From Phyllobacterium sp. 21LDTY02-6 (GTDB taxonomy: Bacteria > Pseudomonadota > Alphaproteobacteria > Rhizobiales > Rhizobiaceae), in NCBI RefSeq assembly GCF_023554255.2, contig NZ_JAMJWD020000001.1, positions 62,001-126,000 of the forward strand: a stretch of DNA of 64,000 nt, given 5' to 3'. Shown here one piece after another: positions 17,478 to 37,480 of the stretch (positions are counted from its first letter, which is position 1; each line of letters starts with the position of its first letter). Position numbers and translations under genes: made by a program. The notes below the pieces were generated by a model, which had not been told where the DNA came from, made no database searches, and saw only the letters and a program-made list of their open reading frames with translations.

Positions 17478-17960
17478 ATGAGTCGTCTGGACAGTTTTAT
17501 TCGCCGCATGACGGCGCAGCGCGATGTTCTCAATCATATTTCCGGTAAAGTTCGAAAGATCGAGGGTCCCATCATCGAATTGGGGCTTGGAAACGGACGG
17601 ACATTCGACCATCTGCGCGAACTGTTCCCGGATCGGCGGATCATAGCTTTCGACCGGGCCGTTGCGTCCCACAAGAGCTCGACGCCGGACGCGGAAAATC
17701 TCGTCATTGGCGAAATCTGCGAAAGCGGCGCCCGGTTCCACGGCATCGACGCCGCGCTCGTTCATGCCGACATAGGCACCGGCTACGACGCGAAGGATGC
17801 CGTCACCCTGACATGGCTGCCCGGGCTTGCTGCCCATATGCTTGCGCCCGGCGGTATCGTCGCGAGCGGCCTGCCGCTGGTTCATCCGTGGCTCGAGCAA
17901 CTGCCGCTGCCATCCAGCGTGAAGGCCGGCCGATATTTTCTGTACCGGCGGACGTCCTAG
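17478..17960 (+). CDS. Small class I SAM-dependent methyltransferase
   Basis: A 160-aa protein with a Rossmann-type SAM site: IELGLGNGRTFDHL is motif I (acidic residue then GxGxG-like), and IIAFDRAV carries the acidic residue expected to bind the ribose. The rest of the fold is short (HADIGTGYDAKDAVTLTWLPG, then a beta hairpin near PLPSSVKAGRYFLYRR). The ATG at 17478 (MSRLDSFIRRM) has GGAAG nine bases upstream; a longer form from 17454 is possible. The stop codon lies in a 16-bp tandem duplication. It converges on the cyclase gene. Substrate unknown. Confidence 0.72.
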   Translation: MSRLDSFIRRMTAQRDVLNHISGKVRKIEGPIIELGLGNGRTFDHLRELFPDRRIIAFDRAVASHKSSTPDAENLVIGEICESGARFHGIDAALVHADIGTGYDAKDAVTLTWLPGLAAHMLAPGGIVASGLPLVHPWLEQLPLPSSVKAGRYFLYRRTS

Positions 17961-17988
17961 TCAAAAATCAGGCTAGTCAAAAATCAGG
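17957..17988. repeat. Perfect 16-bp tandem duplication covering two stop codons
   Basis: The unit ctagtcaaaaatcagg occurs twice in a row (17957-17972, 17973-17988). The first copy carries the TAG stop of the methyltransferase gene on the plus strand; the second carries the TGA stop of the convergent cyclase gene on the minus strand. It is the whole junction between the two genes. Confidence 0.9.
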
Positions 17989-19684
17989 CGAAACGCCCGA
18001 CCGTCTCCTGCGGCACGACATAGGCGCGCAGCGGCTCTGCACGGCCACGGACATTGATCTCGCGGCTTTCGAGATCGGTCATGTCGCTGGCGGCCAGCCT
18101 GACCGTGGGCTCGGAGACGACCAGCGTCACGTCAAGCTCCTTGGCCACGGCCTCCAGCCGGCTCGCGACATTGACCGTATCGCCGATCGCCGTCAGGTTC
18201 TTGACGTTGCCATGGCCCATCGTGCCGACGATCGCGGTTCCCGTGTGAATGCCGATGGCGACCCGCAAGGGCACGCCGAGATCGGGAGCCAGTTCCTTGC
18301 TGAGCTGCTCGATCTGCCGCGCGATGAGAGCAGATGCGCGCAGAGCGCTGCGGCAGGCGGCATCCATGGTGCCGCGAAGCCCGAAGAGCGCCATGGCGCC
18401 GTCGCCGATGAACTTGTCTACCCGACCGCCCGACTGTTCGACTGCGTGGCCGACGATGGCGAAATAGCGATTGAGCAGGAACACGATGTCGAACGGCAAT
18501 TGCGCCTCGGTGAGCGCGGTGAAATTGCGGATATCGCAGAACAGCACGACGATTTCCTGCTCCCGCCCCGGATTGGCCTCCTGCGTGCCCGGAGGCAGAT
18601 TGGCTTCGAGGGCAGGGGCAAGCAGCGGAACAATGCTGATATCGCTCTGTGGCCTGAGCTGGCACGCAAGGCGGACGTCGGCGTCGGCGTTGATGCGGCG
18701 AAGTGTATTGCGTTCCGTCGCATCCGGTGCGGGCAGGTCCTCCGCGCCTTCGATGACCAGCACGCGGCAGGTGGAGCAGCGTCCCTTGCCGCCGCAGACC
18801 GCATAATGGGGGATGCCGCCAAGGCGGCTCGCCTCAAGGACACTGAAGCCGCGGGGAACCCGTACCGTCTGGCCTTCCGGATAGCGAATGGCGATCTGGT
18901 CGGCACGCTCCCGCCATCGGCGATAGGATCGTAGAGCCACCACGCCGATCAGCATCGAGCCGAAACCACCATAAAGGGCATATCTGACGTGATCGACCGT
19001 TTGCTGCGCCGCGAGATCTTGGGCCAGACGGTGCTTGGCGGCGCCATAGCCGCTGCCAAAGCTGGATTGCACAGGTTCGCTTGCCAGGACGCGGCCGGCA
19101 TCGGCGAAACCCAGCAAGGCGAGGACCGGCGCGAGGATGGCAATCGTCAGCAGGAAGGGCGCGGCCGCGGCGTACCACTGGCGATAGCGCAACCAGAAAT
19201 GGACGCCGATGCAGCCATGGATCCATACGATGACGAGCGTGATCGCCTGTTTCACGCCATTGGCGGGAGATTCGATCCACAGGCTGCGGATGACGAACTC
19301 GTAATTGTCGTTGAGACCGGCAATCTCGTGCCGGAGGCGGGTCCCGACCACATGCTCGATCAACAGCAGCGGAATCAGAAGCCCCAGCACTATCTGCACG
19401 GCCTCGCGCGGCGGCATGACCAAGGTGCGGCGGGCATAGATCGCCCGCATTACCAGCACGACATGGACGAGGGCGGCGCCATAGAGCAACAGCGTGCCGA
19501 GAGGGTTGCGCCAGATCAGAAGAAACCAGTCGCGACCGTGTTCGGCGGCTTTCAGGGAAACGAGGTTCAGCGCGTGGTTGGAGAGGTGCAAGGCCACGAA
19601 AACGAGCATGATCAGGCCCGTGATCAACCGCATGCGGCGTAGGGAGCGTTCCGAAAAGAGCGGTCGGGTTTTGCTGTCGGTCAT
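17984..19684 (-). CDS. Membrane adenylate cyclase with His-rich anchor and [2Fe-2S] ferredoxin domain
   Basis: A 566-aa class III cyclase. Residues about 18-255 hold six hydrophobic helices with many histidines (His33, His37, His74, His111, His119, His156, His162), resembling the diheme cytochrome b-like anchor known from Sinorhizobium CyaC. Residues about 262-355 form a plant-type ferredoxin with Cys297, Cys303, Cys306 (YAVCGGKGRCSTC) and Cys341. The catalytic domain from about 375 has metal aspartates Asp384 (FCDIRNFT) and Asp428 (DKFIGDGAMALFG), the adenine-selecting pair Lys424 and Asp502 (IGDTVNVASRL), Asn505 and Arg509, so it should make cAMP. The ATG at 19684 starts MTDSKTRPLF. A redox signal is the likely input. 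Confidence 0.88.
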   Translation of the reverse strand: MTDSKTRPLFSERSLRRMRLITGLIMLVFVALHLSNHALNLVSLKAAEHGRDWFLLIWRNPLGTLLLYGAALVHVVLVMRAIYARRTLVMPPREAVQIVLGLLIPLLLIEHVVGTRLRHEIAGLNDNYEFVIRSLWIESPANGVKQAITLVIVWIHGCIGVHFWLRYRQWYAAAAPFLLTIAILAPVLALLGFADAGRVLASEPVQSSFGSGYGAAKHRLAQDLAAQQTVDHVRYALYGGFGSMLIGVVALRSYRRWRERADQIAIRYPEGQTVRVPRGFSVLEASRLGGIPHYAVCGGKGRCSTCRVLVIEGAEDLPAPDATERNTLRRINADADVRLACQLRPQSDISIVPLLAPALEANLPPGTQEANPGREQEIVVLFCDIRNFTALTEAQLPFDIVFLLNRYFAIVGHAVEQSGGRVDKFIGDGAMALFGLRGTMDAACRSALRASALIARQIEQLSKELAPDLGVPLRVAIGIHTGTAIVGTMGHGNVKNLTAIGDTVNVASRLEAVAKELDVTLVVSEPTVRLAASDMTDLESREINVRGRAEPLRAYVVPQETVGRFA

Positions 19685-24393: not shown

Positions 24394-24855
24394 CTATCTA
24401 GCCTGCTTCTGCTTGCTGCGGGCCTCGCTCAGCTCGGTCGTCGTCTGGCTGAGGCGGTCGGCCAGCACCCGCATGATCTCGATCGTCATTTCAGGATAAT
24501 CGCTGAGCAGCTTGAGAAAATGATCCTTGTTGATGCGCAAGGCCTCGAGCGGCGTATTGGCGCGCACGGTGGCCGTGCGCGAAACATCGCAGAGAATGGC
24601 GATCTCGCCGACGATGGAATCATGTTCGATCTCGGCGACTTTAATCTCGCCGCTGGGCGAATCCGCCAGGATGTCGGCAGCGCCGGTGAGAATGACATAG
24701 GCAGCGTCCGCCGGGTCTCCCTGGCGGAACAGCGTCTGCCCGGCCTTGTAGCTCACCCGTTCGGAAGTGAAAGCCAGCAGCTTGAGCTTGGCTGGTGCAA
24801 CCCCCGAAAACAATGGCACCCGCCGCAACATTTCCACTTCGTCTTTAAGCAACAT
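24394..24855 (-). CDS. Stand-alone cyclic nucleotide-binding domain protein
   Basis: A 153-aa protein consisting almost only of one CNB domain. The phosphate-binding cassette is well kept: IVGEIAILCDVSRTATVRA has Gly83, Glu84, Arg93 and Thr94, so it should bind cAMP or cGMP. A short helix with a basic tail follows (RLSQTTTELSEARSKQKQAR), but there is no helix-turn-helix, so it is not a Crp-type transcription factor. It lies 29 bases downstream of the large ABC protein gene on the same strand and is almost certainly co-transcribed, suggesting that it regulates that protein directly. Confidence 0.85.
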   Translation of the reverse strand: MLLKDEVEMLRRVPLFSGVAPAKLKLLAFTSERVSYKAGQTLFRQGDPADAAYVILTGAADILADSPSGEIKVAEIEHDSIVGEIAILCDVSRTATVRANTPLEALRINKDHFLKLLSDYPEMTIEIMRVLADRLSQTTTELSEARSKQKQAR

Positions 24856-24884: not shown

Positions 24885-27599
24885 CTACGACGCCAGTTGT
24901 TTGAATGCCCCATCCTTTTGCAGGAGAGTATCATATGTTCCGTCCTCGACCAGAGCCCCATTTTCAAAGACGATGACGCGATCGAACGACTCTGCCAGTT
25001 CGGCATTCGACAGGACCCAGATCACGGTCAGCGAATATCCTTCCGTGCCCAGATACTCCAGGATGTTGCGCGTGATGCGGTCCTGTATGCGCTGGTCGAG
25101 CGCCGGCAACGGCCGGTTGAAGATCAGATAGTCCGACTTCTTCAGCAAGGCCCGGGCCACATTGAGCTTCTGCCGCTGCACATTGGTGAGCCGTTTCCCG
25201 CCCGAGCCGACATCGAAGTCGAGGCCGATCGAAAGCACGCTGTCGAACAGGTTCAGCTTGTCGAAGATGTCGCGCAGGATCAGGCGGATGCGCTCCGGAC
25301 CGTCGGCCTGGCTGTAGCCGATCCTGCCGAACAGCACATTGTCGATCAGGCTTGCCGAAGCGATGAACCTGTTCGGGTCATAGCGCTCGATCACATCCTT
25401 CAGATCGTCGGGCATGCCGTCATGGAAGCGGCCGCGCGCATCCACGATCTTGGCCATGAGTTCGTCGTTCAGCAGGCCGAAACGATGCCTGGGCTCGATA
25501 TAGGAGAAGCTCAACCGGATGATGTTCGAACGTTCTTCCGCCGAAGCAGCCTCGATGCCGCGGCCCTGCAACTTCTGCAGCATGAGCTGATAGGCGGGAA
25601 TGTCGTCAGCTGTCATGAAGGTCAATTGCTGGAAGAAAGGGTGATCCGGCGGCAGGTCCTGGAAGAGTTCCACTGCGTTCGCCGCGATTTCGAGACCCAT
25701 CATGTAAAGGTCGATATATAGATCGTTTTCGCGCAGCACCGAGCGGAAATAGGGATGGGCCGCGAGCTTGCGGTTCGTCATGAACGGGCGCTTCATGGAG
25801 CCGAACAGCAGGTTTTCGCCGATCGTCGCCTGCGGATTATAGTCCTTGAGGCGGAAGGGGACGACGAGATCGTCCAGGTCCTCCTTCTTCAACCGCTTGC
25901 GCAAGGCCTGCCGCAGCTCGACGATGCGATCGACGATATCCGCATGGGTGTCGGTATTGACGTTGGACCGCAGCGCCATGTCCTGGATGTCCTGCGAGAT
26001 GAGGACCGCATCGAGCACCGGGCGCACCGCCTTGAATATCTCGGCGGGGCCGCTGACGCCGGCCGAACCATAATCGACCCAGTCGCTGTTCAGGTCGAAT
26101 TCCGGGTTGCCCGCCCGGCGCGCCTCATTGATGTTCCACTTCTGCAGCGCGGCCTGCTTGCCCTCATATTGAACCTGCGTCAGCGGTGCATGTTTAAGGC
26201 CGTAGAGCAGGTTGTCCCGCAGGGTGCCGTGGAAGAAATACGTGTCGGAGGAGGCATAGGCGATGCGCCGCCCGGTTACGGATTCCGGCAGTTCGAGCAG
26301 GTCCCTGCCGTCGATGGTGATGCGCCCCTGGTCGGGCCAGACAAGTCGCGCCAGCGCCTCGGCAATGGCTTCGGCGCCGCTGCCGCTGGTTCCGACGATG
26401 GCTACGGTTTCGCCGGGGTGAATCTCGAGGTTGACGTGGCGCAGCAGTGGCGCCCCCGTATCGTCGGAGATGGTCAGATTGGTGGCATGGAGCGAATGTT
26501 CGAGCCGGCCGACGCTGGCCGGGACCACCGCCTGTATCTTCGGATCGACGAGCTGGTCCACGTTGAACTGTTCGACGACCTGCGCATATTTGACCTGAAC
26601 GTCCTGCCTCGCCTGATCCCAGTCGATGAGTTCCTTCAGCGGGCCCGGCAGGTCCTTGTAGGCGTTGATGACCGCTACAAGCTGGCCGATATCGAGACGG
26701 CCCTGGAGCGCGAGCAAGCCGCCGATCGAGTAGAACAGGAACGGCGTGACCTGCGCCAGGAAATTATTGATGAACTTGACCAGGAATTTCCACTGGTAGA
26801 GGTCATAGCGGATCGAGAAGATCAGCCCGAGGCGGGCCGCGATGTCGGCGCGTTCGTAGTTGGACGTATCGTTGCTGTGGATGGTGCCGATGCCGTCGAC
26901 GATCTCCCCGACGCGGCCCGAAAGCTCACGCGCCGTCAGCTGGCGCTGGCGGCCGAGTTCGAGCAGCCGCCGGCGCATTCGGGGGATGACGACGCCCTGG
27001 ATGGCGACGATGGCCGCGGCTATCATGCCGAGCCAGAAGTTCTGCATGATGATGAAGATCAGCGCCGTCAGCGCCTGCCCGCCGAGAAGCGCCGGCTGCA
27101 CGAAGGCGTCGCCGGTAAAGCCGCCCATCGGCTCGACCTCGTCCTTGATCATGGTGGCGATTTCAGCCGACTTCACCCGCTTGAATTGTGACGGCGGAAA
27201 GCGCAGCACGCGGTCGATCAGCTCAAAGCGGATACGGCGCAGCATCCGCTCGCCGAGGCGGCCCTTATAGGTGTTGATATAGAGCTTGAAGAGACCATTG
27301 ATGACGACGAGCAGCAGGAAGACCAGGCTGAGCGCCATCAGCATCTGGAACCGATTGAGCTGTAGCCCTTCGAAGAACACGACATCGCCGATGAAAGGCA
27401 GGTCGTACTGCAATCGCATGAATGTCTGGGTGGCGCCCGGGTTCTCGAAGCCGACGCCCTGAATGGGCCCGTTGACGATCTGCTTGGGCAGATCGAATGA
27501 AAGGAAGTACGGCACCATCGAAATGGCCACCACCACCAGAATCCATATCTGCTGCAGCCGCGTATTAGACCAGATATAGCGCGTTAGGCTTTTTTCCAT
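24885..27599 (-). CDS. Aberrant ABC exporter-like protein with degenerate, expanded nucleotide-binding domain
   Basis: A 904-aa fusion of an exporter-type membrane domain (about residues 1-340, roughly five to six helices, short coupling segments) and an enlarged ABC domain (about 368-904, over twice the usual 240). Catalytic motifs are altered: Walker A reads GTSGSGAEA (residues 403-411, Lys replaced by Ala), the signature region is SGGKRLTNVQRQ (799-810) instead of LSGGQ, Walker B is YLIFNRPLPALD (824-835, lacking the Asp-Glu), and the switch His is replaced in VIWVLSN. The motif normally following the Q-loop occurs three times: TLRDNLLYG (459-467), TIGENLLFG (592-600), SLIDNVLFG (750-758). 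Start: ATG at 27599; a TTG two codons upstream is possible. Probably not a normal ATPase. Confidence 0.82.
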   Translation of the reverse strand: MEKSLTRYIWSNTRLQQIWILVVVAISMVPYFLSFDLPKQIVNGPIQGVGFENPGATQTFMRLQYDLPFIGDVVFFEGLQLNRFQMLMALSLVFLLLVVINGLFKLYINTYKGRLGERMLRRIRFELIDRVLRFPPSQFKRVKSAEIATMIKDEVEPMGGFTGDAFVQPALLGGQALTALIFIIMQNFWLGMIAAAIVAIQGVVIPRMRRRLLELGRQRQLTARELSGRVGEIVDGIGTIHSNDTSNYERADIAARLGLIFSIRYDLYQWKFLVKFINNFLAQVTPFLFYSIGGLLALQGRLDIGQLVAVINAYKDLPGPLKELIDWDQARQDVQVKYAQVVEQFNVDQLVDPKIQAVVPASVGRLEHSLHATNLTISDDTGAPLLRHVNLEIHPGETVAIVGTSGSGAEAIAEALARLVWPDQGRITIDGRDLLELPESVTGRRIAYASSDTYFFHGTLRDNLLYGLKHAPLTQVQYEGKQAALQKWNINEARRAGNPEFDLNSDWVDYGSAGVSGPAEIFKAVRPVLDAVLISQDIQDMALRSNVNTDTHADIVDRIVELRQALRKRLKKEDLDDLVVPFRLKDYNPQATIGENLLFGSMKRPFMTNRKLAAHPYFRSVLRENDLYIDLYMMGLEIAANAVELFQDLPPDHPFFQQLTFMTADDIPAYQLMLQKLQGRGIEAASAEERSNIIRLSFSYIEPRHRFGLLNDELMAKIVDARGRFHDGMPDDLKDVIERYDPNRFIASASLIDNVLFGRIGYSQADGPERIRLILRDIFDKLNLFDSVLSIGLDFDVGSGGKRLTNVQRQKLNVARALLKKSDYLIFNRPLPALDQRIQDRITRNILEYLGTEGYSLTVIWVLSNAELAESFDRVIVFENGALVEDGTYDTLLQKDGAFKQLAS

Positions 27600-27844: not shown

Positions 27845-28969
27845 CTATAAAAGTTGCCGCAGGATTTGTGCGGTCTGGCTGGCGCCATCGAGTTTCAGTG
27901 GGTGCAAGGGGGGAGGCGGACCGTTCAGCATGGTGCCGACAGCAGCAGCCAGTACCTCGCTGTTCAGGCCATCTTCCGGGATCGCCGTTGCGAGGCCGAG
28001 GGTTTCGAGACGGGTGGCGCGCACGCTCTGTTCTGTTTCCCCGCCGGCCGTGAACGGCACCAGGATGGACCGGCAGCCAGCCTGGAGAATATCGCAGACC
28101 GTGTTGTATCCCGCCTGGGATATCGACAGTTCGGCGTTGCGCAACAATGACGGAAAATCCCGGCGAAAGCGCGTGACCGACACATTCGCCGGGGCATCCG
28201 CCGACAGATTGCTGAATTCGTTCTCGGGCAGGTTGGGGCCGGTAATCAGACACCAGGACCGCGACGAGGTTCGGGCGACCCCGTAGGCGGCGCGCAGCAG
28301 ATCATAGCCGACGGCACCACCGCCGGCCGACACCACAATGTCGAAACGGTCGTCGACTGGTGGCGGAGGGGGCGCGGCGACCAGTCCCGTATAGACGATC
28401 TTGCCGGCGATCTGGCTGGCGAGGGGAAATGTCTCCGGCAGGGTGACGAAATCCGGGTCGCCATGGACAAGGATGCGGTCGAAATGGGCTTTGACGAGCG
28501 CGACAGTCTCCTCGTCGCGTCCGGGTTTCGTGCGCTCCTGCAGGATGTCGCGAACCGATGTCAGCAATAGCGGCCGCGGCCTGCTCGCAGCGATCGCGTC
28601 GAGCAGGGGCAGCAGTTCGAACCGCATCTGGCGCCGGCCGAAGGGAAACGCTTCGACGATGACGATATCGGGCTTTTCCCGGCGGAATGTTTCGAGAAGC
28701 TGGTTGCGCCGCCGGTCGAGATAATCCTGGCTCGCGATCGCGCCCTTTTCGTCGGCAAGTCCGGAAAAGCCTGCGCTGGCGGCGAGGAGCGGCGGCAGCG
28801 CCTCGGACCTTACGCGGCCGCTGGGAAATCCCGGCACGGCGGAACCACCCGTGACGACGAGGACATCGAATTCCGCTTCCGCCAGGGCATCGGCGATACG
28901 GCTGGCACGGGCAATGTGGCCAATGCCGAGAAGATGCTGCACGTAGAACAGAACGCGCGGGGGCTTCAT
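27845..28969 (-). CDS. MurG-like (GT28-type) glycosyltransferase
   Basis: A 374-aa GT-B enzyme. The N-terminus MKPPRVLFYVQHLLGIGHIARASRIADAL has the GxGH loop characteristic of MurG/GT28 and related enzymes. The donor half contains IVVSAGGGAVGYDLLRAAY, the acidic-poor SQAGYNTVCDILQAG loop and ILVPFTAGGETEQSVRATRLETLG, which match the nucleotide-sugar site of the family. The start at 28969 gives a 4-base ATGA overlap with the preceding gene, so the two are translationally coupled. It is a paralogue-like relative of the protein encoded at 30221-31432. Product unknown. Confidence 0.82.
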   Translation of the reverse strand: MKPPRVLFYVQHLLGIGHIARASRIADALAEAEFDVLVVTGGSAVPGFPSGRVRSEALPPLLAASAGFSGLADEKGAIASQDYLDRRRNQLLETFRREKPDIVIVEAFPFGRRQMRFELLPLLDAIAASRPRPLLLTSVRDILQERTKPGRDEETVALVKAHFDRILVHGDPDFVTLPETFPLASQIAGKIVYTGLVAAPPPPPVDDRFDIVVSAGGGAVGYDLLRAAYGVARTSSRSWCLITGPNLPENEFSNLSADAPANVSVTRFRRDFPSLLRNAELSISQAGYNTVCDILQAGCRSILVPFTAGGETEQSVRATRLETLGLATAIPEDGLNSEVLAAAVGTMLNGPPPPLHPLKLDGASQTAQILRQLL

Positions 28970-30210
28970 CGGCGCTGCCATTCATCCTCGAACAGTCCTG
29001 CCAACTGGCGGATGCTCGAATTGTGATCGAAATGCTCCCGGACGCGCCGCTCCGCCGCAAGGCCGAGCCTGTGCCGCAATTGCGGATTGCGGATCGCCGT
29101 TTCAAGCGCTCGCGCCAGGCCGTGCGGATCGTCCGGCGGGACCAGGATGCCGTTCTCGCCGTGGGTGATCAGTTCAGGGATGCCCGATATCGCCGTGGAA
29201 ACGCAGAGGAGGTTCTGGCTCGAAGCCTCGACGAGAACATTGGGCAGCCCGTCCCGGTCGCCATCCTGCGCGATCCGACAGGCCAGGGCAAAGACATCCG
29301 CGCGGCGATAGTGATCGAGGACATCCTCCTGTGCCAGCGCTCCCTTCCAGATTATGCGGTCGTTTATGGCGAGATTGTCGGCCAGGGCGCGCAGGCGGGG
29401 CAGTTCGTCGCCGCCACCGATATGCACGAAACGCCAGGCGAGCTCGGGCGGCAGAAGCCCGAGCGCCTGCAGCAGGATATCGTAGCCCTTCTTGGTTACC
29501 GCTCGCCCGACGCTGAGAATTTCCACCGGAGCGTCAGGATCGGTGCCGTCGCGGTCGGACCTTGCCTCGGCAAAATGCCCGAAGCGGGCAAGATCAAGCC
29601 CGTGATAGCTCAAATGGACCTGGCGCTTGCGATCGGTCAGGCTGCGCATGTGGTCGAAGCCCGACCTTGTGCAGGTGACGCTCCACCGCGCCTCCGCCAG
29701 CTTCTCGTTCAATTCCCAATCGGCCGAGGTCCAGATATCCTTGGCATGGGCCGAGCAGGTCCACGGCACGCCCGTCAGCAGGCTCGTATAGGCGGCCACG
29801 GACGCCGGCGTATGGATGAAATGCGCATGCAGCCATTCGCCCGCATTCGGCCATTCACGCGCCAGAACCATGGCCTGGCCGAGCCGGCGGAAGCGATTGC
29901 GGCTGAAATCGCGCATCAAATCCCGCCAGAAGCGGCGCAGGACCGCGCCGAGCCGTGGCGAACGCATGCCGGCAACAAGGCCCTTGAACACGCGCAGGGG
30001 TTCCTCATGCAGATATTCGGGCAGGTAGACAACCGGCGCCTTGATCTCGTCATGGATCGGATGGCGCTTCTTGTCGGTCGGCCTCCGCATCGATATCAGC
30101 GTGAGATCGAAGCCGGCCTTTTCGAGGCCGAGCAGTTCCTGCGCGATGAAGGTTTCGGAAAGGCGCGGATAGCCTTTCAATATCACCAGTATTTTGCGGC
30201 GTATCGGCAA
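28966..30210 (-). CDS. Family 4 glycosyltransferase
   Basis: A 414-aa GT4 enzyme. The acceptor domain begins MPIRRKILVILKGYPRLSETFIAQELLGLEKAG, a pattern shared by capsule and exopolysaccharide glycosyltransferases. The donor domain shows EILSVGRAVTKKGYDILLQAL, WRFVHIGGGDELPRL and the donor motif DGLPNVLVEASSQNLLCVST followed by GISGIPELITHGENGILVPP-like residues. The TTG start at 30210 is chosen because it lies ten bases after the stop of the upstream gene, has AAGAGA in front, and begins exactly at the family N-terminus; an upstream start would overlap that gene widely. Middle gene of a three-gene glycosyltransferase operon. Confidence 0.82.
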   Translation of the reverse strand: MPIRRKILVILKGYPRLSETFIAQELLGLEKAGFDLTLISMRRPTDKKRHPIHDEIKAPVVYLPEYLHEEPLRVFKGLVAGMRSPRLGAVLRRFWRDLMRDFSRNRFRRLGQAMVLAREWPNAGEWLHAHFIHTPASVAAYTSLLTGVPWTCSAHAKDIWTSADWELNEKLAEARWSVTCTRSGFDHMRSLTDRKRQVHLSYHGLDLARFGHFAEARSDRDGTDPDAPVEILSVGRAVTKKGYDILLQALGLLPPELAWRFVHIGGGDELPRLRALADNLAINDRIIWKGALAQEDVLDHYRRADVFALACRIAQDGDRDGLPNVLVEASSQNLLCVSTAISGIPELITHGENGILVPPDDPHGLARALETAIRNPQLRHRLGLAAERRVREHFDHNSSIRQLAGLFEDEWQRR

Positions 30211-30220
30211 GTGCAGTCTC

Positions 30221-31432
30221 TTATTCGGCGACAGCGGGAAGCGCCTCCTCGGCGCGTTCGTCCAACCATCCGCCAACGATTTCGGAGATGTGGACCAATC
30301 CCTCGAGACGCAGGCCGTTCTCCACACGACGCGAGGGCGGCGTGCGCTCGGGCAGACGCTTCAACGCCTGCGCGAGCCGTAAAGGGTCCTCGGCATCTTC
30401 CGGTAGAAGCATATCCACCAGGCCGAGTTCCGATGCGCGCTTTGCGCGGATGAGTTGCTCCTCGCGCGGGGCGAGGCGGGGGACGATCAGCGCCGGCTTG
30501 TCGAAGGAAAGAATCTCGCAATAGGTGTTGTAGCCACCCATCGCAACGACGGCTTTTGCCCCGGCGATGAGTTCTTCCATGCGATTATCGAACTCGATCA
30601 CCTGAATATAGGGGATTTTGCTGCCTTTTTTGACCAGTTTTGCGCGCTGTTTCGCTGGCATATACGGCCCGAGCACGATGAAAGCCTTGTGCTGCAGGTC
30701 CGGATCCTGCTGGTAGGCGTGGATGACATTGTGCACCAGATCCGCGCCGTCGCCGCCGCCGCCGGTGGTGACAAGGATATAGTCGCCTTTCGGCACATGT
30801 TCCGAGGCAGCCTCGTGCGACACGCTGCGCTGCAGGAAACCGACAAAGGTCATCTTGTCGCGAACCTGCTTCGGCACGTCGAGATTGACCAGCGGATCGT
30901 AGAAATCCGGCGGGCCGTAGACCCAGACATCGTCGTAGAGCTGGTCGATCTTGTGCATGACGTCATTCTGTTTCCACTCGGCATCCAGCAGATGCGGCGC
31001 GTCCATGACTTCACGCAGGCCCAGCACCAGTTTCGTGCCGCGCGATTTCAGATAATGCAGCGTTTCCTCCACCTCGCCCTTCAGGCCCATCGGCTCCTTA
31101 TCAACGATAAAGATATCCGGCTGGAAGGTTTCGGCGGTGTGGCGGATGATCGACTGGCGCATCTTCAGCGTCTCGTGCAGATCGATGTGACGCGCCATGG
31201 AGGTGTATTCGCCGTTGCGGAGCTTGATCACGCTCGGGACTTTCACGAAGTCCACCCTCGCACGATAATCGAAGGCGCCGGCAATGGTTGCACCCGAAAT
31301 GATCAGGATGTTCAATCCCCGGTAATCTTCGACCAGGGAATGGGCGATCGTCCGGCATCGGCGCAAATGGCCGAGCCCGAACGTATCGTGACTATACATG
31401 AGGATCCGCGCATCATCGTAACGCCGCATCAT
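30221..31432 (-). CDS. MurG-like glycosyltransferase family protein
   Basis: A 403-aa GT-B enzyme starting MMRRYDDARILMYSHDTFGLGHLRRCRTI, again with the GxGH loop. Later parts include LVLGLREVMDAPHLLDAEW, ILVTTGGGGDGADLVHNVI and VVAMGGYNTYCEILSFDKPALIVPR, which correspond to the donor nucleotide-sugar site. The ATG at 31432 has AAGAAGG eight bases upstream. It is the first gene of the glycosyltransferase set and follows the importer permease gene by 77 bases. Same general type as the product of 27845-28969, so the pathway probably adds two related sugars flanking the GT4 step. Confidence 0.82.
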   Translation of the reverse strand: MMRRYDDARILMYSHDTFGLGHLRRCRTIAHSLVEDYRGLNILIISGATIAGAFDYRARVDFVKVPSVIKLRNGEYTSMARHIDLHETLKMRQSIIRHTAETFQPDIFIVDKEPMGLKGEVEETLHYLKSRGTKLVLGLREVMDAPHLLDAEWKQNDVMHKIDQLYDDVWVYGPPDFYDPLVNLDVPKQVRDKMTFVGFLQRSVSHEAASEHVPKGDYILVTTGGGGDGADLVHNVIHAYQQDPDLQHKAFIVLGPYMPAKQRAKLVKKGSKIPYIQVIEFDNRMEELIAGAKAVVAMGGYNTYCEILSFDKPALIVPRLAPREEQLIRAKRASELGLVDMLLPEDAEDPLRLAQALKRLPERTPPSRRVENGLRLEGLVHISEIVGGWLDERAEEALPAVAE

Positions 31433-31509
31433 GGCCGAAACCTTCTTTGGTGCGGGATGATCCGCATGTGTGAACCGGTCGGTTTGTGTGAAAGCAACCT
31501 GTGTGCCTT

Positions 31510-32685
31510 TTATCTGTATGGATCGGCTGCGTCGCGCAAGCCGTCTCCCAAGAAATTGAACGCGAGAATCACCAGGATGACCGGGATCATAGGGAAGAGC
31601 AGCCACGGATAGAAGGCAATTACACTCACGCTGCGTGCCTCCGTCAACAATATGCCCCAGCTTGTGATAGGCGGTCTTAGTCCCAGGCCGAGAAAACTCA
31701 AGGCCGTTTCCCCCAGAATCATGCCGGGGATCGAGATCGTCGCAGTGGCGATAAGATGCGACATGAAGCCTGGAACGAGGTGCCGGCCGATGATGCGGCT
31801 GCTTTTTGCCCCCATGAGCTGCGCCGCGAGTACATAGTCCTCCTCGCGCAATGCAAGGAGCTTCGAGCGCACAGAGCGCGCAAGCCCCGTCCAGTCCAGC
31901 ATGCCGAGAATGATGGTGATGCCGAAATAGATCAGGATCGGGCTCCAGGTGACGGGCATGATGGCGGCAAGCGCCATCCAGAGCGGCAGACTAGGCAAGG
32001 ATTGCAGCACTTCGATGACGCGTTGGACGAGAAGGTCGAATACGCCGCCATGATAGCCGGCAAGGCCGCCGATGACGATGCCGAGAACGAAGCTTATCGT
32101 TATGCCGATCAGGCCGATCGTGAGCGAGATGCGCGCGCCATAGATTATGCGCGAAAGCACGTCCCGGCCGAGGCGGTCGGTGCCAAGCAGGAACATCTCG
32201 CCATTCTCGGCGGGGCAGACGAAATGGATGTTGCCTTTGACCAGCCCCCAGAACCTGTAATCGTCGCCGCGGCAGAAAAAGCGCAGCGGCTGCACGTCGC
32301 TTCTGTTCTCCGGGTAAAGCCGCCGCATCTTCTCCTTGTCCACGCTGAATGTCCGGCCATAGACGAACGGGCCGACAAAGCGGCCATTGTCGAAGAAATG
32401 AACGCGCTGGGGCGGGGAGTGGATGAAATCGGTGTTGCGGGTGTGCAGATTATACGGCGCCAGGAACTCGGCTATGACGATCATGCCATAGAGCAGGGCG
32501 AGGAATATGCCCGAGGCAAGGGCAAGCCGGTGCCGCTTGAATTTCCACCACATCAGCCGCAATTGCGACGCCTTGTGGACCTTTACCTGCGCCTCGGTCA
32601 TGGCCTCGATCGACATCGGATCGAAGGGCGCACTCGACACGTAATGCGGCAGCGGTGCGCCTGGAGGAGGAAGTTGGGCCGTCAC
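31510..32685 (-). CDS. Opp/Dpp-type ABC importer permease (C subunit)
   Basis: A 391-aa inner-membrane permease. One N-terminal helix (LALASGIFLALLYGMIVIAEF) is followed by a roughly 120-residue periplasmic insertion (PPQRVHFFDNGRFVGPFVYG onward), then LGTDRLGRDVLSRIIYGARI and the five-helix permease domain with the EAA-type coupling motif near AAQLMGAKSSRIIGRHLVPG. The GTG start at 32685 overlaps the previous stop by four bases (GTGA). The long insertion is a feature I associate with Dpp-family permeases that import oligosaccharides or large peptides. Works with the other three importer genes upstream. Confidence 0.85.
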   Translation of the reverse strand: MTAQLPPPGAPLPHYVSSAPFDPMSIEAMTEAQVKVHKASQLRLMWWKFKRHRLALASGIFLALLYGMIVIAEFLAPYNLHTRNTDFIHSPPQRVHFFDNGRFVGPFVYGRTFSVDKEKMRRLYPENRSDVQPLRFFCRGDDYRFWGLVKGNIHFVCPAENGEMFLLGTDRLGRDVLSRIIYGARISLTIGLIGITISFVLGIVIGGLAGYHGGVFDLLVQRVIEVLQSLPSLPLWMALAAIMPVTWSPILIYFGITIILGMLDWTGLARSVRSKLLALREEDYVLAAQLMGAKSSRIIGRHLVPGFMSHLIATATISIPGMILGETALSFLGLGLRPPITSWGILLTEARSVSVIAFYPWLLFPMIPVILVILAFNFLGDGLRDAADPYR

Positions 32686-33680
32686 TTGGTGCTCCTGCCG
32701 GCAAGCCGGATGCGCGGGTCGAGGAATGCGAGGGCGATATCGGAGACGAGCACGCCGATGACCGTAAGGAAGGCAAGGAACATCAGGAAGGAACCGGCGA
32801 GATACATGTCCTGGCTCTGCAGGGCCTTGATCAGCATCGGTCCCGTGGTTTCGAGCGAGAGCACGATGGCGGTGATCTCGGCGCCGGAGATGATCGCCGG
32901 CAGGATCGATCCTATATCCGAGACGAAGAAATTCAACGCCATGCGCAGCGGATATTTGACCAGCGTGCGGAAAGGATGGAGCCCCTTTGCCCGCGCCGTC
33001 ATCACATATTGCTTCTGCAGTTCGTCCAGAAGATTGGCGCGGAGCCTGCGGATCATGCCTGCGGTGCCGGCTGTGCCGACAATGATGACCGGTATCCACA
33101 GATGCGACAGGATCGAACGGGCCTTCTCCCAGCTCATGGGCTCGTTCAGATATTTCTGGTCCATCAAATGCCCGATCGAGGTGCCGAACCAGATATTGGC
33201 GAAGTACATGAGGATCAGCGCCAGCATGAAATTCGGGATTGCTATGCCGATGAGCCCCAGGAATGAGAGGCCGTAATCGCCCCAGCTATATTGATGCGTG
33301 GCAGAATACATGCCGATCGGAAATGCAATGAGCCAGGTGAAGAGGATCGTCACGAAGGACACGAGGATGGTGAGCCACATGCGGTCGCCGATCACGTCTC
33401 TCACCGGCAGCTGATATTCGAACGAATAGCCGAAATCGCCCTGCAGCATACCGCCCAGCCAGTTGAAATATCGCAGGACCGGCGGCTGGTCGAAGCCGTA
33501 CTGGTGGCGCAGTTCCTCGATTTCCTGCAGATTGACGGTCTCGCCCTGCGCCCTGAGTTCGGCTATCTGGCTTTCGAAGAAATTGCCGGGCGGCAATTCG
33601 ATGATCACGAAGACCAGCGCCGAGATGATGAGCAGCGTCGGTATCATCGCGGCGATGCGCCAGAGTATGTATCGCAGCAT
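32682..33680 (-). CDS. Opp/Dpp-type ABC importer permease (B subunit)
   Basis: A 332-aa inner-membrane permease. It begins MLRYILWRIAAMIPTLLIISALVFVIIEL, the standard DppB/OppB N-terminus, with a periplasmic segment (PPGNFFESQIAELRAQGE) and six predicted helices. The coupling motif lies in YVMTARAKGLHPFRTLVKYPLRMALNF, and the C-terminal helix contains FLAFLTVIGVLVSDIALAFLDPRIRL. The ATG directly follows the stop of the binding-protein gene, and the 3' end overlaps the C permease gene by four bases, so both permeases are co-expressed. Confidence 0.87.
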   Translation of the reverse strand: MLRYILWRIAAMIPTLLIISALVFVIIELPPGNFFESQIAELRAQGETVNLQEIEELRHQYGFDQPPVLRYFNWLGGMLQGDFGYSFEYQLPVRDVIGDRMWLTILVSFVTILFTWLIAFPIGMYSATHQYSWGDYGLSFLGLIGIAIPNFMLALILMYFANIWFGTSIGHLMDQKYLNEPMSWEKARSILSHLWIPVIIVGTAGTAGMIRRLRANLLDELQKQYVMTARAKGLHPFRTLVKYPLRMALNFFVSDIGSILPAIISGAEITAIVLSLETTGPMLIKALQSQDMYLAGSFLMFLAFLTVIGVLVSDIALAFLDPRIRLAGRSTK

Positions 33681-35591
33681 CTACGCCTGTCCTTCGCTGA
33701 ACCAGAATGTATCGGGCATGTAGACGCCGAGATAGCAGGTGGGATTGAACCCGTAGAGGCCGCGGCTGGGCACATTCTGCAGCCTTGAAGAGCGCAGGAT
33801 CGGCTGTTCCGTGCCATTCACTATGCCGATGGAGAGAACCTCCTGGGTATAGAGGGAGAGCATCTTGTGCCAGATGGCGGTGCGGTCCTTTAATTCGGCG
33901 GATTTCTGCCATTGATCGAGAAGTTTGGCGAGTTCCACGGCCGTCGGCATGTCCGGCGCGGTGCCCTGTTCGCCGTGAGACAGGTGATACATGCCCCAAA
34001 GCGGCCATTGCATCTGGTCGTCCATGGTCGGCGCCAGCTGGCCCGGGTTCATGTCGGCCGTCGCGACGCCATTGTCGAGGCCGTACCAGATGGACATCAT
34101 GATGCGCCCGCCCATTGCCCGGCTGCGGAAGATTTCGCGCTGCGATGTCCGGACGAAAAGCGCGATGCCGATCCGCCGCCAATGATCGGTCACGAGCTCG
34201 AGGACATCGGTGTCGACGCTGCTTTCCCCAGGGGTTTCGATGGTTATTTCCGCCGGACGGCCATCGGGAAGCAGGCGGATATCGTCGCTGTTGCGTTTGT
34301 CGAGGCCGGCTTGATCCAGCAGCCGGTTGGCCTCCTCCGGATCATGGGCGATCCAGGCATTGGCATATTCGGGCCTGAACAACGGGCTCTCGGGCAAGAC
34401 GGTATCGGCGCTCGGCGTCGCCAGGCCGAAGAAGACCGCCATGTTGATTTCGTGGCGGTCGATCGCCAGGGAAAGGGCCCGCCGCACCCGGACATCGTGA
34501 AACAGGCGGCGCCAGACCTCGTCCTGGCAATTGAGGTTCGGAAATATGGCGACTCTCGACCCGCGCGTCGACTTCCAGAGATCCACCTTCACCGGATAGC
34601 GTTTCTCGGCATCTTTCAGGAATGTGTAGTCGCTGAAATCGATCCCGGTCGCCTGCAGTTCGCTTTCGCCGGCGCCCGTCTTGGCCGCTATGATGGCGGA
34701 GGAACTGACATTCAGGATGAACCGGTCGATATAGGGCAGCTGCCGCCCATTCTCGTCGACGCGGTGGAAAAAGGGATTGCGTTCGAAGACGAATTGCTCG
34801 GCCGGCGGCTTCGTCGTATTGCGCCATGGATAGAGGGTCGGCAGTTCCGGGTTTTCGGGGCGGTATTCGCGCGCCATCTTGATGTGCAGATCGGCCCATT
34901 TCTTGACCCGGTTTTCCTGCATAAGGGCCGCAAGCCGGAAGGAATCCTGGTATTTCTCGTGGAATTTCTTCAGATAGGCCGAAGGTCCGACAAGGATGAG
35001 CGGCTGCGGGGCGGCGATGCTCGGCAGGAAATTGGGATTGGGCGCGTCCCAGGAATAGCGGATGGTGAGTGCGTCGAGGACCTCGAAACGCGGAAGCTTG
35101 CCATCGACGCGAAGATCGAGCGAACCGCCGCCGGGTGTCAGGTCCTTGTTGAGAATGACGTCCTCCCACCAATAGCGGAAATCGTCGGCGGTGAGAGGCG
35201 ATCCGTCTGACCATCTGTGTCCGTCACGAAGCGTGAAGGTGAAGACGGTGTCCCGGTCCGCCTCGAACGCTTCAAGGATATCGGGCTGAAAGTTCAGCTT
35301 CTCATCATAGCCCACGAGCCGCGCATAACCGTAAATGGTCATGAAGCGGATATCCTTGGCGCTGCCGATAATGGTGCGCACGGTGCCGCCATAGCGGCCC
35401 GGGATCCGGCCCATTTCCTTGAGGCCGACGATCCGCGGACGTTTCGGTATGCGCTGGACGAGAGGCGGGATGCTTCTCGCCTTCAATTGGGGTTCGAGAA
35501 ATTCCGGCTCCAGCTCACGGTCGGCGCAATTGGCGGCACCGGGAAGGAGCGAGCAGCCGATTCCGGCAAGCACGGTGCGGCGGGTTACCAT
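33681..35591 (-). CDS. Family 5 extracellular solute-binding protein of an Opp/Dpp-type importer
   Basis: A 636-aa periplasmic binding protein (SBP_bac_5). The start MVTRRTVLAGIGCSLLPGAANC has a twin-arginine-like signal peptide. The mature part shows FTFTLRDGHRWSDGSPLTADDFRYWW, the family signature, then VRRALSLAIDRHEINMAVFFG and DPEEANRLLDQAGLDKR. It is longer than peptide-specific DppA (about 535), as in binding proteins that take larger ligands such as Sinorhizobium AgpA for alpha-galactosides. Its start overlaps the stop of the ATPase gene by seven bases. Ligand unknown; an oligosaccharide from the neighbouring lyase is one option. Confidence 0.85.
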   Translation of the reverse strand: MVTRRTVLAGIGCSLLPGAANCADRELEPEFLEPQLKARSIPPLVQRIPKRPRIVGLKEMGRIPGRYGGTVRTIIGSAKDIRFMTIYGYARLVGYDEKLNFQPDILEAFEADRDTVFTFTLRDGHRWSDGSPLTADDFRYWWEDVILNKDLTPGGGSLDLRVDGKLPRFEVLDALTIRYSWDAPNPNFLPSIAAPQPLILVGPSAYLKKFHEKYQDSFRLAALMQENRVKKWADLHIKMAREYRPENPELPTLYPWRNTTKPPAEQFVFERNPFFHRVDENGRQLPYIDRFILNVSSSAIIAAKTGAGESELQATGIDFSDYTFLKDAEKRYPVKVDLWKSTRGSRVAIFPNLNCQDEVWRRLFHDVRVRRALSLAIDRHEINMAVFFGLATPSADTVLPESPLFRPEYANAWIAHDPEEANRLLDQAGLDKRNSDDIRLLPDGRPAEITIETPGESSVDTDVLELVTDHWRRIGIALFVRTSQREIFRSRAMGGRIMMSIWYGLDNGVATADMNPGQLAPTMDDQMQWPLWGMYHLSHGEQGTAPDMPTAVELAKLLDQWQKSAELKDRTAIWHKMLSLYTQEVLSIGIVNGTEQPILRSSRLQNVPSRGLYGFNPTCYLGVYMPDTFWFSEGQA

Positions 35592-37480
35592 GAGCGCAGC
35601 TCCCGGGCATCGACATTGCGCCGGGCAAGAACGAGATGGCCGCCTCCGAGGTCAGCGGCGGCAAGCGCCCCGGCCTCGTTGCCATCGTCCGAGAATTGCG
35701 GCCCCCAGGCATTCTGGTCCATCGCCTCGCCGGTGCGCAAGGCATTGAAATCAAGTGGCCGGTCGAGGTCCGGGAAGGGCACGGCTGCCAGCAACGCCCG
35801 CGTATATGGATGTACCGGGCGGCGAAGGATGATCTCCCGGGGTGCGATCTCGACGATCTTTCCGGCGCACATGACGGCGATCCGGTCCGCCATGTAATCG
35901 ACCACCGCGAGATTGTGCGAGATGAAGAGGTAGGTCAGGCCCAGTTCCTTCTGCAAATCCTTCAGGAGATTGAGAATCTGCGCCTGTACCGACACGTCGA
36001 GGGCCGAGACGGGCTCGTCGCAGATCAGGAGCTTCGGCCCAAGGGCGAGCGCCCTCGCGATACCTATCCGCTGGCGTTGCCCGCCGGAGAAACTATGCGG
36101 ATAGCGGTTCAGATAGCGCTGGTCCAGGCCGATGGCCTCGATCAGTCCCTTCACCTTTTCCGCGCGATAGGCCTTGTCGCCGCGGTCGTGGATTTCGAGC
36201 GGTTCGCTCAGAATATTCTTCACGGTCATGCGCGGAGACAGGGAAGAAACCGGGTCCTGGAACACCATCTGGATGCGGGACCGCAATTCCATGAGCGTGT
36301 CGCCCTGCGCGGCGAGCACGTCGATCTTGCCTCGGCCATCGTCAAAGGTGACGGAGCCGCTGTCCGGGGTAACGCCGCGCATCAATATCTTGCTGACGGT
36401 GGTCTTCCCACTGCCGCTTTCGCCGACGAGGCCGAGGCATTCGCCGCGCATGATATCGAAGCTGACGCCATCAACCGCCTTCACTCCGTGGCCGCCTTCC
36501 GTGCCGAACAGGCCCGATTTTCGTGTCTTGTAGGTCTTGACGAGATCGCGGACGCTAAGGAGCACATCGGGAGCATCGACCGCATCGCGGGCCTTTTTCG
36601 CCCAGAGCGTGCCGGAATTGACCTTCACCTCGCGCAATGCCTTCAGGCGTTCGCCCGGCTTCATGTCGAAATGCGGCACGGCGGCCATCAAGCCCTTGAG
36701 ATAGGGGTGCTGCGGGCGGCGGAAGATGGATTCTACTGGACCCGCCTCCATTATCTCGCCGTGATAGATGACCACGACTTCATCGGCCATGTTTGCCACC
36801 ACGCCGAGGTCGTGGGTGATCAGCAACATTGCCATGTTGAGCTTGCGTTGCAGGTCTTTCAGCAAGTCGAGTATCTGCGCCTGGATGGTGACATCGAGCG
36901 CGGTGGTGGGCTCGTCGGCGATGAGGAGCGCCGGGCGGCAGATCAGCGCCATGGCGATCATGGCGCGCTGGCGCATGCCGCCCGAAAGCTCGAATGGATA
37001 CATGTCGTAGGTTCGGGAGGGATTGGCGAACCCGACGAGGCCCAGCATCTTCTCGGTCTGGGCGCGCTGCTCGTCCCGGCTGGCCGCCGTGTGGATGGCG
37101 AGGACTTCGCTGATCTGGTTGCCCACGGTGTGCAGCGGGGACAAGGACGTCATCGGTTCCTGGAATATTTTCGCCATGCGGCTGCCGCGCAGTGCGCGCA
37201 GTTCCTTGCCGTCGCGCTTCAGCTTGAGAATATCCGTGGATTTTCCCGTCAGCGGATCGGTGAATATGATCTGGCCGGAAACCCTGGCCGTATCGGGCAA
37301 TATGCCCATCACCGACTGGCTGATGACGGACTTGCCGGAGCCGGATTCACCGACCAGCGCCGTGACCTTGCCGGGAAGAACGCGCAAGTTGGCGCCCTTC
37401 ACCACCTGCAATCGCCCGCCGAGCATTGAGAACGAGATTCCGAGATTCTCGATGCGTAAAAGATCCGATCCCGACGTCAT
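35585..37480 (-). CDS. Dual ATP-binding protein of an Opp/Dpp-type ABC importer
   Basis: A 631-aa fusion of two ATPase domains (DppD plus DppF). The first has Walker A ALVGESGSGKSVISQSV, signature FELSGGMRQRAMIAMAL and Walker B LLIADEPTTALD. The second has LVGESGSGKTTVSKILM, FSGGQRQRIGIARALAL and LLICDEPVSALDVSVQ. Both halves end with the oligopeptide-type C-terminal extension (HPYLKGLMAAVPHFD and HPYTRALLAAVPFPD). All catalytic residues are intact, in contrast to the large ABC protein downstream. First gene of the four-gene importer set (ATPase, binding protein, two permeases). Confidence 0.9.
   Translation of the reverse strand: MTSGSDLLRIENLGISFSMLGGRLQVVKGANLRVLPGKVTALVGESGSGKSVISQSVMGILPDTARVSGQIIFTDPLTGKSTDILKLKRDGKELRALRGSRMAKIFQEPMTSLSPLHTVGNQISEVLAIHTAASRDEQRAQTEKMLGLVGFANPSRTYDMYPFELSGGMRQRAMIAMALICRPALLIADEPTTALDVTIQAQILDLLKDLQRKLNMAMLLITHDLGVVANMADEVVVIYHGEIMEAGPVESIFRRPQHPYLKGLMAAVPHFDMKPGERLKALREVKVNSGTLWAKKARDAVDAPDVLLSVRDLVKTYKTRKSGLFGTEGGHGVKAVDGVSFDIMRGECLGLVGESGSGKTTVSKILMRGVTPDSGSVTFDDGRGKIDVLAAQGDTLMELRSRIQMVFQDPVSSLSPRMTVKNILSEPLEIHDRGDKAYRAEKVKGLIEAIGLDQRYLNRYPHSFSGGQRQRIGIARALALGPKLLICDEPVSALDVSVQAQILNLLKDLQKELGLTYLFISHNLAVVDYMADRIAVMCAGKIVEIAPREIILRRPVHPYTRALLAAVPFPDLDRPLDFNALRTGEAMDQNAWGPQFSDDGNEAGALAAADLGGGHLVLARRNVDARELRSW

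What the first reader, a model, noticed from the sequence alone, without database searches (positions are those of the whole stretch)
24885..27599. ABC protein with ablated ATPase motifs and a threefold repeat of the post-Q-loop motif
Seen directly: Walker A Lys is Ala, the LSGGQ signature reads RLTNVQ, Walker B lacks Asp-Glu, the switch His is missing, and the nucleotide-binding domain is more than twice normal size. The short motif that normally follows the Q-loop occurs three times (residues about 459, 592 and 750). Established: these residues are needed for ATP hydrolysis in ABC exporters. Inference: the gene arose by internal duplication of the helical subdomain and now works as a pseudo-ATPase, scaffold or sensor, gated by the adjacent CNB protein.
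Basis: partly seen in the sequence, partly recalled or inferred. Interest (0 to 1): 0.82.

Follow-up and report, generated by a model that had tools for sequence, protein, structure and literature searches.

The report
ABC transporter rewired to cyclic nucleotides
A widespread family of ABC-transporter-like membrane proteins has lost key residues needed to burn ATP, carries an enlarged motor domain with a motif repeated three times, and nearly always travels with a cyclic-nucleotide-binding partner that likely controls it in place of ATP.

Summary
The 904-aa protein at 24885-27599 (-) has an ABC exporter membrane domain and a complete but eroded NBD about 2.3 times normal size. Walker A Lys, Q-loop Gln, Walker B Asp and Glu and the switch His are all replaced. 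The post-Q-loop motif occurs three times (Asn 463, 596, 754). This is a family trait: of 244 members (90% non-redundant) none keeps more than three of the five residues, while the three Asn stand in 242, 244 and 244. Units 2 and 3 are true duplicates (hhalign 99.0%, 77 columns); unit 1 shares only the core. The family occurs in 148 of 387 sampled genomes of the class, under strong purifying selection. Conservation is inverted against an ordinary exporter: the membrane domain is better kept than the NBD. A cyclic-nucleotide-binding (CNB) protein is encoded directly downstream (113) or fused to the C-terminus (12) in 125 of 126 loci. Glycosyltransferases and an oligopeptide-type importer usually accompany it. 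Best reading: a translocator of a glycan module that no longer hydrolyses ATP and is likely gated by a cyclic nucleotide. Gating, substrate and ATP independence are untested.

The parts
24885..27599 (-). ABC904: ABC exporter-like half-transporter, 904 aa, with eroded NBD
   Evidence: ORF and translation; Pfam ABC_membrane 87-311 and ABC_tran 386-488
26565..27599 (-). membrane domain, residues 1-345
   Evidence: Pfam PF00664; AF2 long helices 5-46, 83-133, 188-235, 246-298; residues 83-345 are the best conserved part
26190..26513 (-). NBD N-half, residues 363-470 (Walker A, Q-loop)
   Evidence: Pfam PF00005; aligns with canonical NBD
26367..26393 (-). Walker A position, GTSGSGAEA, Lys409 to Ala
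26199..26225 (-). unit 1 motif TLRDNLLYG (459-467), 56 residues after Walker A start, as in three canonical exporters of the genome
25365..26168 (-). extra segment 478-745 inside the NBD
   Evidence: between the two stretches that match solved exporters; no Pfam family above its cut-off (only DUF5789, E 0.095, below cut-off); no PDB sequence at E up to 1; AF2 blocks of pLDDT 64-93, mostly above 80
25680..25922 (-). unit 2 (560-640), with ENLLFG, Asn596
   Evidence: hhalign with unit 3: 99.0%, 77 columns; Asn596 in 244 of 244
25200..25457 (-). unit 3 (715-800), with DNVLFG, Asn754, 54 residues before the signature
   Evidence: 715-818 vs canonical Q-loop-to-signature: 97.9%, 77 of 79 columns
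24888..25199 (-). NBD C-half (801-904) with signature RLTNVQ, Walker B IFNRP, D-loop ALD, H-loop VLSNA
24394..24855 (-). CNB protein, 153 aa, 29 nt downstream, phosphate-binding cassette GEIAILCDVSRTATV intact
   Evidence: Pfam cNMP_binding 2.5e-22; partner beside or fused in 125 of 126 loci; Glu and Arg in 106 of 107
27845..28981 (-). glycosyltransferase, GT28_C type (GT28a)
   Evidence: Pfam; in 99 of 126 loci
28966..30297 (-). glycosyltransferase, GT4 type (GT4a)
   Evidence: Pfam, NCBIfam; in 100 of 126 loci
30221..31606 (-). glycosyltransferase, GT28_C type (GT28b)
   Evidence: Pfam; in 98 of 126 loci
31510..37480 (-). oligopeptide-type ABC importer: permease C, permease B (32682-33680), binding protein (33681-35591), double ATPase (35585-37480)
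   Evidence: Pfam and NCBIfam; neighbourhood
17984..19600 (-). Fer2 plus class III nucleotide cyclase protein, possible source of the ligand
   Evidence: Pfam Fer2 and Guanylate_cyc; a cyclase-like ORF in 19 of 126 loci

Best explanation
The gene encodes an ABC exporter-like half-transporter whose ATPase residues are replaced and whose nucleotide-binding domain is enlarged by a duplicated helical segment, and it likely works as a membrane translocator that no longer hydrolyses ATP and is predicted to be gated by the cyclic-nucleotide-binding (CNB) protein encoded next to it. Shown by sequence: the replaced residues, the repeats, the CNB partner beside or fused, the accompanying glycan genes and the conserved membrane domain. 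Inferred: (1) the protein dimerises through its membrane domains as ordinary half-transporters do; (2) the NBD has become a permanent coupling and docking module, the extra helical units giving it surface for the CNB and for the coupling helices; (3) cAMP, or another ligand of the CNB fold such as ppGpp, binds the CNB and shifts the NBD pair, opening or closing the membrane path; (4) the path carries the glycan product, or an intermediate, of the neighbouring glycosyltransferases, driven by its gradient or by proton motive force rather than ATP; (5) the neighbouring importer takes fragments back up.
For: Catalytic residues: 0 of 244 members keep more than three of five; 144 keep none. Three Asn kept in 242, 244, 244 of 244. 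Inverted conservation: membrane domain 0.68, NBD parts 0.57-0.60, against 0.62 and 0.71 in 29 canonical exporter orthologues of equal mean identity, 0.48 and 0.49. Purifying selection: dN/dS 0.04-0.10 for the whole gene in the pairs where dS could be computed, membrane domain 0.01-0.03. In 126 loci a CNB gene lies on the same strand with its stop 400-800 nt after the ABC stop in 113 and is fused in 12; the CNB domain is listed for 120 of 120 relatives of a fused Sulfitobacter query. Cassette Glu and Arg in 106 of 107 separate CNBs. No second full exporter in any of 126 loci. Each of three glycosyltransferases in 98-100 of 126 loci. Annotated cyclase on the same strand, just before the importer genes, in R. 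etli CFN 42 and R. johnstonii 3841. Precedent for the ABC membrane fold working without ATP: SbmA, driven by protons (PMC13316013, abstract). Precedent for a CNB on an ABC exporter: HetC (PMC10986499, passages).
Against: No ligand, transport or ATPase measurement was seen. Walker A Lys is kept in 84 of 244 members; Lys, Gln and Glu together in 53 of the 63 that keep three residues, mostly Reyranella-like; and Lys, Asp and Glu together in L132-L134. Part of the family may therefore still bind ATP. In the fused clade the cassette Glu is Asp in 126 of 132, so its ligand may differ or be lost. 12 of the 40 loci fetched with 16-20 kb lack the glycosyltransferases (counted), so the glycan link is not universal. 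One locus, L170, has no CNB nearby. Both structure models are monomers and least certain in conserved parts of the membrane domain.
Confidence: 0.45

Rival explanations
1. Pseudo-transporter scaffold or sensor: the membrane domain no longer moves anything, and the protein organises the glycosyltransferases at the membrane and passes the cyclic-nucleotide signal to them.
For: Eroded NBD, glycosyltransferase neighbours, CNB partner.
Against: The membrane domain is the best conserved part, dN/dS 0.01-0.03, with polar positions invariant in 116 rows, such as Asn278, Gln283, Lys315 and Asp316; a mere anchor should drift.
Confidence: 0.2
2. ATP is still bound but not, or only slowly, hydrolysed, and serves as the gate or as glue of the NBD dimer, as at degenerate sites of other exporters; the CNB modulates it.
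For: Walker A Lys in 84 of 244; Lys plus Gln plus Glu in 53 of the 63 members that keep three residues; Lys, Asp and Glu in L132-L134. Degenerate sites elsewhere bind ATP stably (PMC7756269, passages).
Against: In the near relatives Lys is Ala, Gly, Ser or Thr, and 144 of 244 members keep none of the five residues.
Confidence: 0.17
3. Obligate heterodimer with a canonical half-transporter encoded elsewhere, which supplies the one working ATP site, as in TM287/288 or TAP.
For: Foldseek and VIA-align place TM287/288, TmrAB and other heterodimers among the matches; many exporters with one degenerate site are heterodimers (PMC7756269, passages).
Against: No second full exporter in any of 126 loci. 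Both composite sites of a heterodimer need motifs from both chains, and here Walker A, Walker B and signature are all eroded.
Confidence: 0.12
4. Decaying gene without function.
For: Copies that look broken exist in a few genomes (L127, L065, L160).
Against: Open reading frames and dN/dS 0.04-0.10; conserved repeats and CNB partner across the class.
Confidence: 0.02

Closest known systems
ABC exporters of the MsbA / ComA / TM287-288 kind
   Different: Five catalytic residues replaced; about 295 residues extra inside the NBD with two more copies of the helical motif; CNB partner; MsbA model cut-off of 602 bits not reached
HetC of Nostoc (peptidase-containing ABC exporter with a CNB domain)
   Same: CNB domain joined to an ABC exporter and required for function (PMC10986499, passages)
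   Different: HetC has its CNB at the N-terminus, a C39 peptidase and an ATPase that is essential; its CNB binds ppGpp in vitro
SbmA (SLiPT family)
   Same: ABC exporter membrane fold that works without ATP (PMC13316013, abstract)
   Different: SbmA is described as related to the membrane domain (lack of an NBD recalled); here a whole, enlarged NBD is kept under selection
CFTR (recalled, apart from listings and passages)
   Same: ABC exporter turned into a gated conduit with a degenerate site
   Different: CFTR keeps one working ATP site and is gated by ATP; here no consensus site is left in this lineage
S. meliloti MsbA2 (SMb21191)
   Same: ABC exporter beside glycosyltransferases, linked to an unknown polysaccharide (PMC3687685, PMC12239276, passages)
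   Different: Its described four-gene operon starts with an acyltransferase; the S. meliloti relative found here lies after three glycosyltransferases and an importer, so it looks like another gene; identity with msbA2 was not tested by sequence

Membership tests
ABC exporter (half-transporter) | ABC_membrane domain fused to an NBD | tested here: met
   Pfam PF00664 1.2e-17 and PF00005 5.9e-15; fold match
ABC exporter (half-transporter) | Walker A Lys | tested here: not met
   Ala409; Lys in 84 of 244 members
ABC exporter (half-transporter) | Walker B Asp and catalytic Glu | tested here: not met
   Asn828, Arg829; Asp in 15 and Glu in 77 of 244
ABC exporter (half-transporter) | LSGGQ signature | tested here: not met
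   LTNVQ; LSGGQ in 0 of 527 aligned members
ABC exporter (half-transporter) | Q-loop Gln and switch His | tested here: not met
   Ser451, Ser864; Gln in 62 and His in 8 of 244
ABC exporter (half-transporter) | D-loop Asp | tested here: met
   Asp835, 90% or more of 116 rows
MsbA lipid A exporter | NCBIfam TIGR02203 cut-off 602 bits | tested here: not met
   206.4 bits
Heterodimeric exporter with one consensus site | a canonical partner half-transporter | tested here: inconclusive
   none in 126 loci; a partner elsewhere in the genome is not excluded
Cyclic-nucleotide-binding domain (partner protein) | cNMP_binding domain with cassette Glu and Arg | tested here: met
   Pfam; Glu and Arg in 106 of 107 separate CNBs; that these two residues hold the ligand is recalled
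Cyclic-nucleotide-gated transporter | transport changes on binding of a cyclic nucleotide | not testable with these tools
   needs biochemistry
HetC-type CNB-ABC exporter | C39 peptidase and intact ATPase | tested here: not met
   no peptidase domain; ATPase residues replaced
SbmA / SLiPT | membrane domain without NBD (recalled) | tested here: not met
   NBD present

The most novel reading that the evidence does not exclude
A class of ABC proteins in which a cyclic-nucleotide receptor has replaced ATP as the conformational driver: a homodimeric ABC-fold conduit for a cell-surface glycan, opened or closed by cAMP through an NBD that was turned from motor into signal coupler by duplication of its helical subdomain.
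Probability: 0.3. Interest if true: 0.9.

Novelty: new variant of a known kind. Interest (0 to 1): 0.72.

Why it matters
ABC proteins are the textbook ATP-driven transporters, and their motor domain is normally the best conserved part. Here is a large natural series, in over a third of the sampled genomes of one class (148 of 387), in which the motor erodes to different degrees while the membrane domain, a triplicated helical motif and a cyclic-nucleotide partner stay. If the partner gates the membrane domain, it shows how a primary pump becomes a second-messenger-controlled conduit, and gives ready-made intermediates for testing how ABC membrane domains work without ATP. It also points to a glycan module, not described in the papers I saw, shared by rhizobia, Azospirillum and Sulfitobacter.

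Tried and rejected
Identity with S. meliloti msbA2: considered because of the glycosyltransferase operon; set aside since the described operon differs, but not tested with the SMb21191 sequence. Heterodimer with a neighbouring canonical exporter: none in 126 loci by a phmmer search with one canonical exporter (frames over 500 aa, over 200 bits). Pseudogene: excluded by dN/dS. The extra segment alone against PDB sequences: nothing at E up to 1. Foldseek and VIA-align with the whole model return only ABC proteins in the 50 rows shown each; the segment was not folded and searched alone, so no statement on its fold is made. Weaker repeat results: with the 116-row alignment unit 1 against unit 3 gave only 48.7 over 14 columns and unit 1 against unit 2 76.0 over 31; the whole segment 478-745 against the canonical helical stretch gave only 41.2, and segment 478-790 against the NBD C-half 0.6. 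No shuffles were run for the comparisons with the canonical stretch. Locus-tag searches: SMb20813 is named as an msbA homologue with no link shown to this gene. pRL110056, named among O-antigen biosynthesis enzymes important for root colonisation in PMC11103875 (passage), may by counting gene numbers be the nucleotide sugar dehydrogenase beside the cluster on pRL11; this is unverified. My first tally of the Q-loop used residue 450 by mistake; one search repeats it at 451, and only one search is used for it. In one search seven loci were flagged as having the CNB upstream or on the other strand; that came from stop-to-stop frames and one search shows all 113 downstream on the same strand. One search also counted L164 and L170 among the fused rows wrongly; one search repeats the count without them. 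On the tree the label 'fused' was set by length and is wrong for L176, which has a separate CNB; without it the two changes would become one, which I did not rerun. Literature: nine of ten searches in an open-licence library; none described the family in the titles and abstracts listed, but subscription papers are not held.
Full report

The motor is eroded, in the whole family. In this protein Lys409 is Ala, Gln451 is Ser, Asp828 is Asn, Glu829 is Arg and His864 is Ser, and the signature is LTNVQ. I collected members with a profile of the extra segment from 360 proteins and from locus frames of at least 780 aa (shorter, partly broken copies were not collected): 538 hits, 527 after removing identical rows, the window's protein included, reduced at 90% identity to 244. 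None of the 244 keeps more than three of the five residues: 144 keep none, 17 one, 20 two and 63 three; none of the 527 keeps four or five, and none has LSGGQ. Lys is kept in 84 of 244, Gln in 62, Asp in 15, Glu in 77 and His in 8. At 60% identity (42 rows) 12 keep none and 7 keep three. Result against my reading: Lys, Asp and Glu stand together, with a consensus Walker A, in L132, L133 and L134 (L165 is the L132 gene again), and Lys, Gln and Glu in 53 of the 63 rows with three. The set leans towards the search centres, so these shares are not frequencies in nature. On a quick tree of 59 membrane domains, with 24 of 56 inner branches weakly supported, the Lys state changes at least 11 times, so it was lost, or regained, repeatedly.

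The threefold motif is real. Asn463, Asn596 and Asn754 are kept in 242, 244 and 244 of 244. Of nine ABC proteins of the same genome a motif pattern recognised the motif in three (56 residues after the start of Walker A and 48-53 before the signature), hit another place in one and found nothing in five; in one of these five, the sequence printed shows it by eye at 56 as well. Here motif 1 lies 56 after Walker A and motif 3 lies 54 before the signature. So the two ends of an ordinary NBD are at motifs 1 and 3, and about 295 residues holding motif 2 were added between them. Profile comparison: unit 2 with unit 3, probability 99.0 over 77 columns; unit 1 with unit 2, 88.0 over 17; unit 1 with unit 3, 83.9 over 22. 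Against the canonical Q-loop-to-signature stretch: unit 3 (715-818) 97.9 over 77 of 79 columns, unit 1 97.5 over 24, unit 2 74.7 over 34. Column shuffles gave at most 2.7 in 30 for units 2 and 3, and 2.2 in 30 for units 1 and 2. In 65 sliding windows against unit 3, the ten best all lay in 501-676 (all). With the smaller alignment the unit 1 matches are weaker (76.0 and 48.7). The two AF2 models repeat the same order of helix, short strand, six-residue helix and short strand at units 2 and 3.

It is under selection, but with inverted emphasis. Among six Phyllobacterium-type sequences (the window's and L009, L010, L012, L013, L014) dN/dS of the whole gene is 0.04-0.10 in the 11 of 15 pairs where dS could be computed; dS is near saturation. 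The membrane domain gives 0.01-0.03, the NBD C-half up to 0.15. As a control I took 29 orthologues of one canonical exporter across the class (mean pairwise identity 0.49): mean frequency of the commonest residue 0.62 in the membrane domain and 0.71 in the NBD. For 27 members of this family (0.48; the frames of at least 780 aa among the best-scoring loci, plus the window's): 0.68 in the membrane domain, 0.57 in the NBD N-half, 0.60 in the extra segment and 0.59 in the C-half. [quoted passage not shown]

How widespread. The extra segment is found in 148 of 387 genomes of the class (92 of 264 genera) and 38 of 397 drawn from the phylum, all 38 in the same class; a fused relative as query found 26 of 299, again all in the class. 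Named plasmid records: 262, mostly Rhizobium and Sinorhizobium, with Phyllobacterium, Azospirillum, Ruegeria, Sulfitobacter and others. A search from a Sulfitobacter member also lists Moritella and Granulosicoccus, which are Gammaproteobacteria.

The CNB partner. Downstream, with a gap of 29 nt, lies a 153-aa CNB protein. Of 126 loci holding the ABC gene, 113 have a separate CNB gene, in all 113 on the same strand with its stop 400-800 nt after the ABC stop; in 12 it is fused to the C-terminus, and one, L170, has none. These loci are redundant: 80 are close relatives and 6 are plasmid stretches. Among the 40 stretches that I chose for diversity from the hits it is 31 separate, 8 fused and 1 without (counted). 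Pfam shows the fusion in 4 of 4 long members tested, and the CNB domain is listed for all 120 relatives shown for a fused query. Separate CNBs keep the cassette Glu and Arg in 106 of 107 rows (96 distinct sequences), the exception being L173; among the diverse set 28 of 29. Fused ones have Asp in 126 and Glu in 6 of 132, with Arg in all 132.

The neighbourhood. Two GT28-type and one GT4-type glycosyltransferases (98-100 of 126 loci at over 40 bits), an oligopeptide-type importer (binding protein in 79, each permease in 77) and a polysaccharide deacetylase-like protein (29) recur. Flank lengths differ, so absence can mean a short stretch. The importer ATPase, the MBL protein and the cyclase belong to large families, so their counts mix in paralogues. 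The order is seen in named records of R. etli, R. johnstonii, Sulfitobacter and Azospirillum. In the first two an annotated cyclase lies on the same strand just before the importer. In 12 of the 40 diverse stretches the glycosyltransferases are missing, and Ruegeria conchae has other neighbours, so the CNB is the constant partner and the glycan genes are the usual one. No second full exporter was found in any of 126 loci.

How it likely works. Shown: eroded motor, kept membrane domain, repeated helical units, CNB beside or fused. Inferred: the CNB senses a nucleotide messenger and moves the NBD pair, which moves the membrane domain, in place of ATP. The cargo would be the product of the glycosyltransferases, since no other exporter was found nearby. 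SbmA shows that an ABC membrane fold can run on a proton gradient (PMC13316013, abstract), and HetC shows a CNB attached to an ABC exporter, there binding ppGpp (PMC10986499, passages). Whether ATP still binds in members that keep Lys is open.

Novelty. Nine literature searches in an open-licence library gave no description of this family in the titles and abstracts listed; this does not show that none exists. The fold is that of ABC exporters, so I call it a new variant of a known kind.

Noticed in passing
17984-19600 (-): A protein joining a 2Fe-2S ferredoxin domain (241-318) to a class III nucleotide cyclase domain (346-528), with hydrophobic stretches before them by eye; it could be a redox-controlled source of cAMP for the CNB.
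   Followed up: partly
window 37600-38562 (-): Polysaccharide lyase (PF14099) at the end of the cluster, labelled GH16 in my script; recurs in 8 of 126 loci and fits a module that makes, cuts and takes up a glycan.
   Followed up: partly
residues 157-175 and 318-329 of the ABC protein (27075-27131 and 26613-26648): Conserved stretches of the membrane domain are the least certain in the AF2 model; two stretches of the fused relative (134-146, 307-315) are uncertain too. They may be gating elements that a monomer model cannot place.
   Followed up: no
L127, L065, L160: Copies that look broken: a frame ending early in two relatives (L127, L065) and a gene in two pieces in another (L160).
   Followed up: no
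L136, L137, L140, L142, L143: A far branch of the family with a strongly altered NBD C-half; the L142 gene, fetched again with wide flanks as L170, has no CNB nearby.
   Followed up: partly
22702-24381 (+): Calcineurin-type phosphoesterase directly beside the CNB gene on the other strand, seen in 7 of 126 loci; could degrade the messenger.
   Followed up: no
window 17406-17960 (+): SAM-dependent methyltransferase (PF12692), labelled HPh in my script; relatives found in 19 of 126 loci.
   Followed up: no
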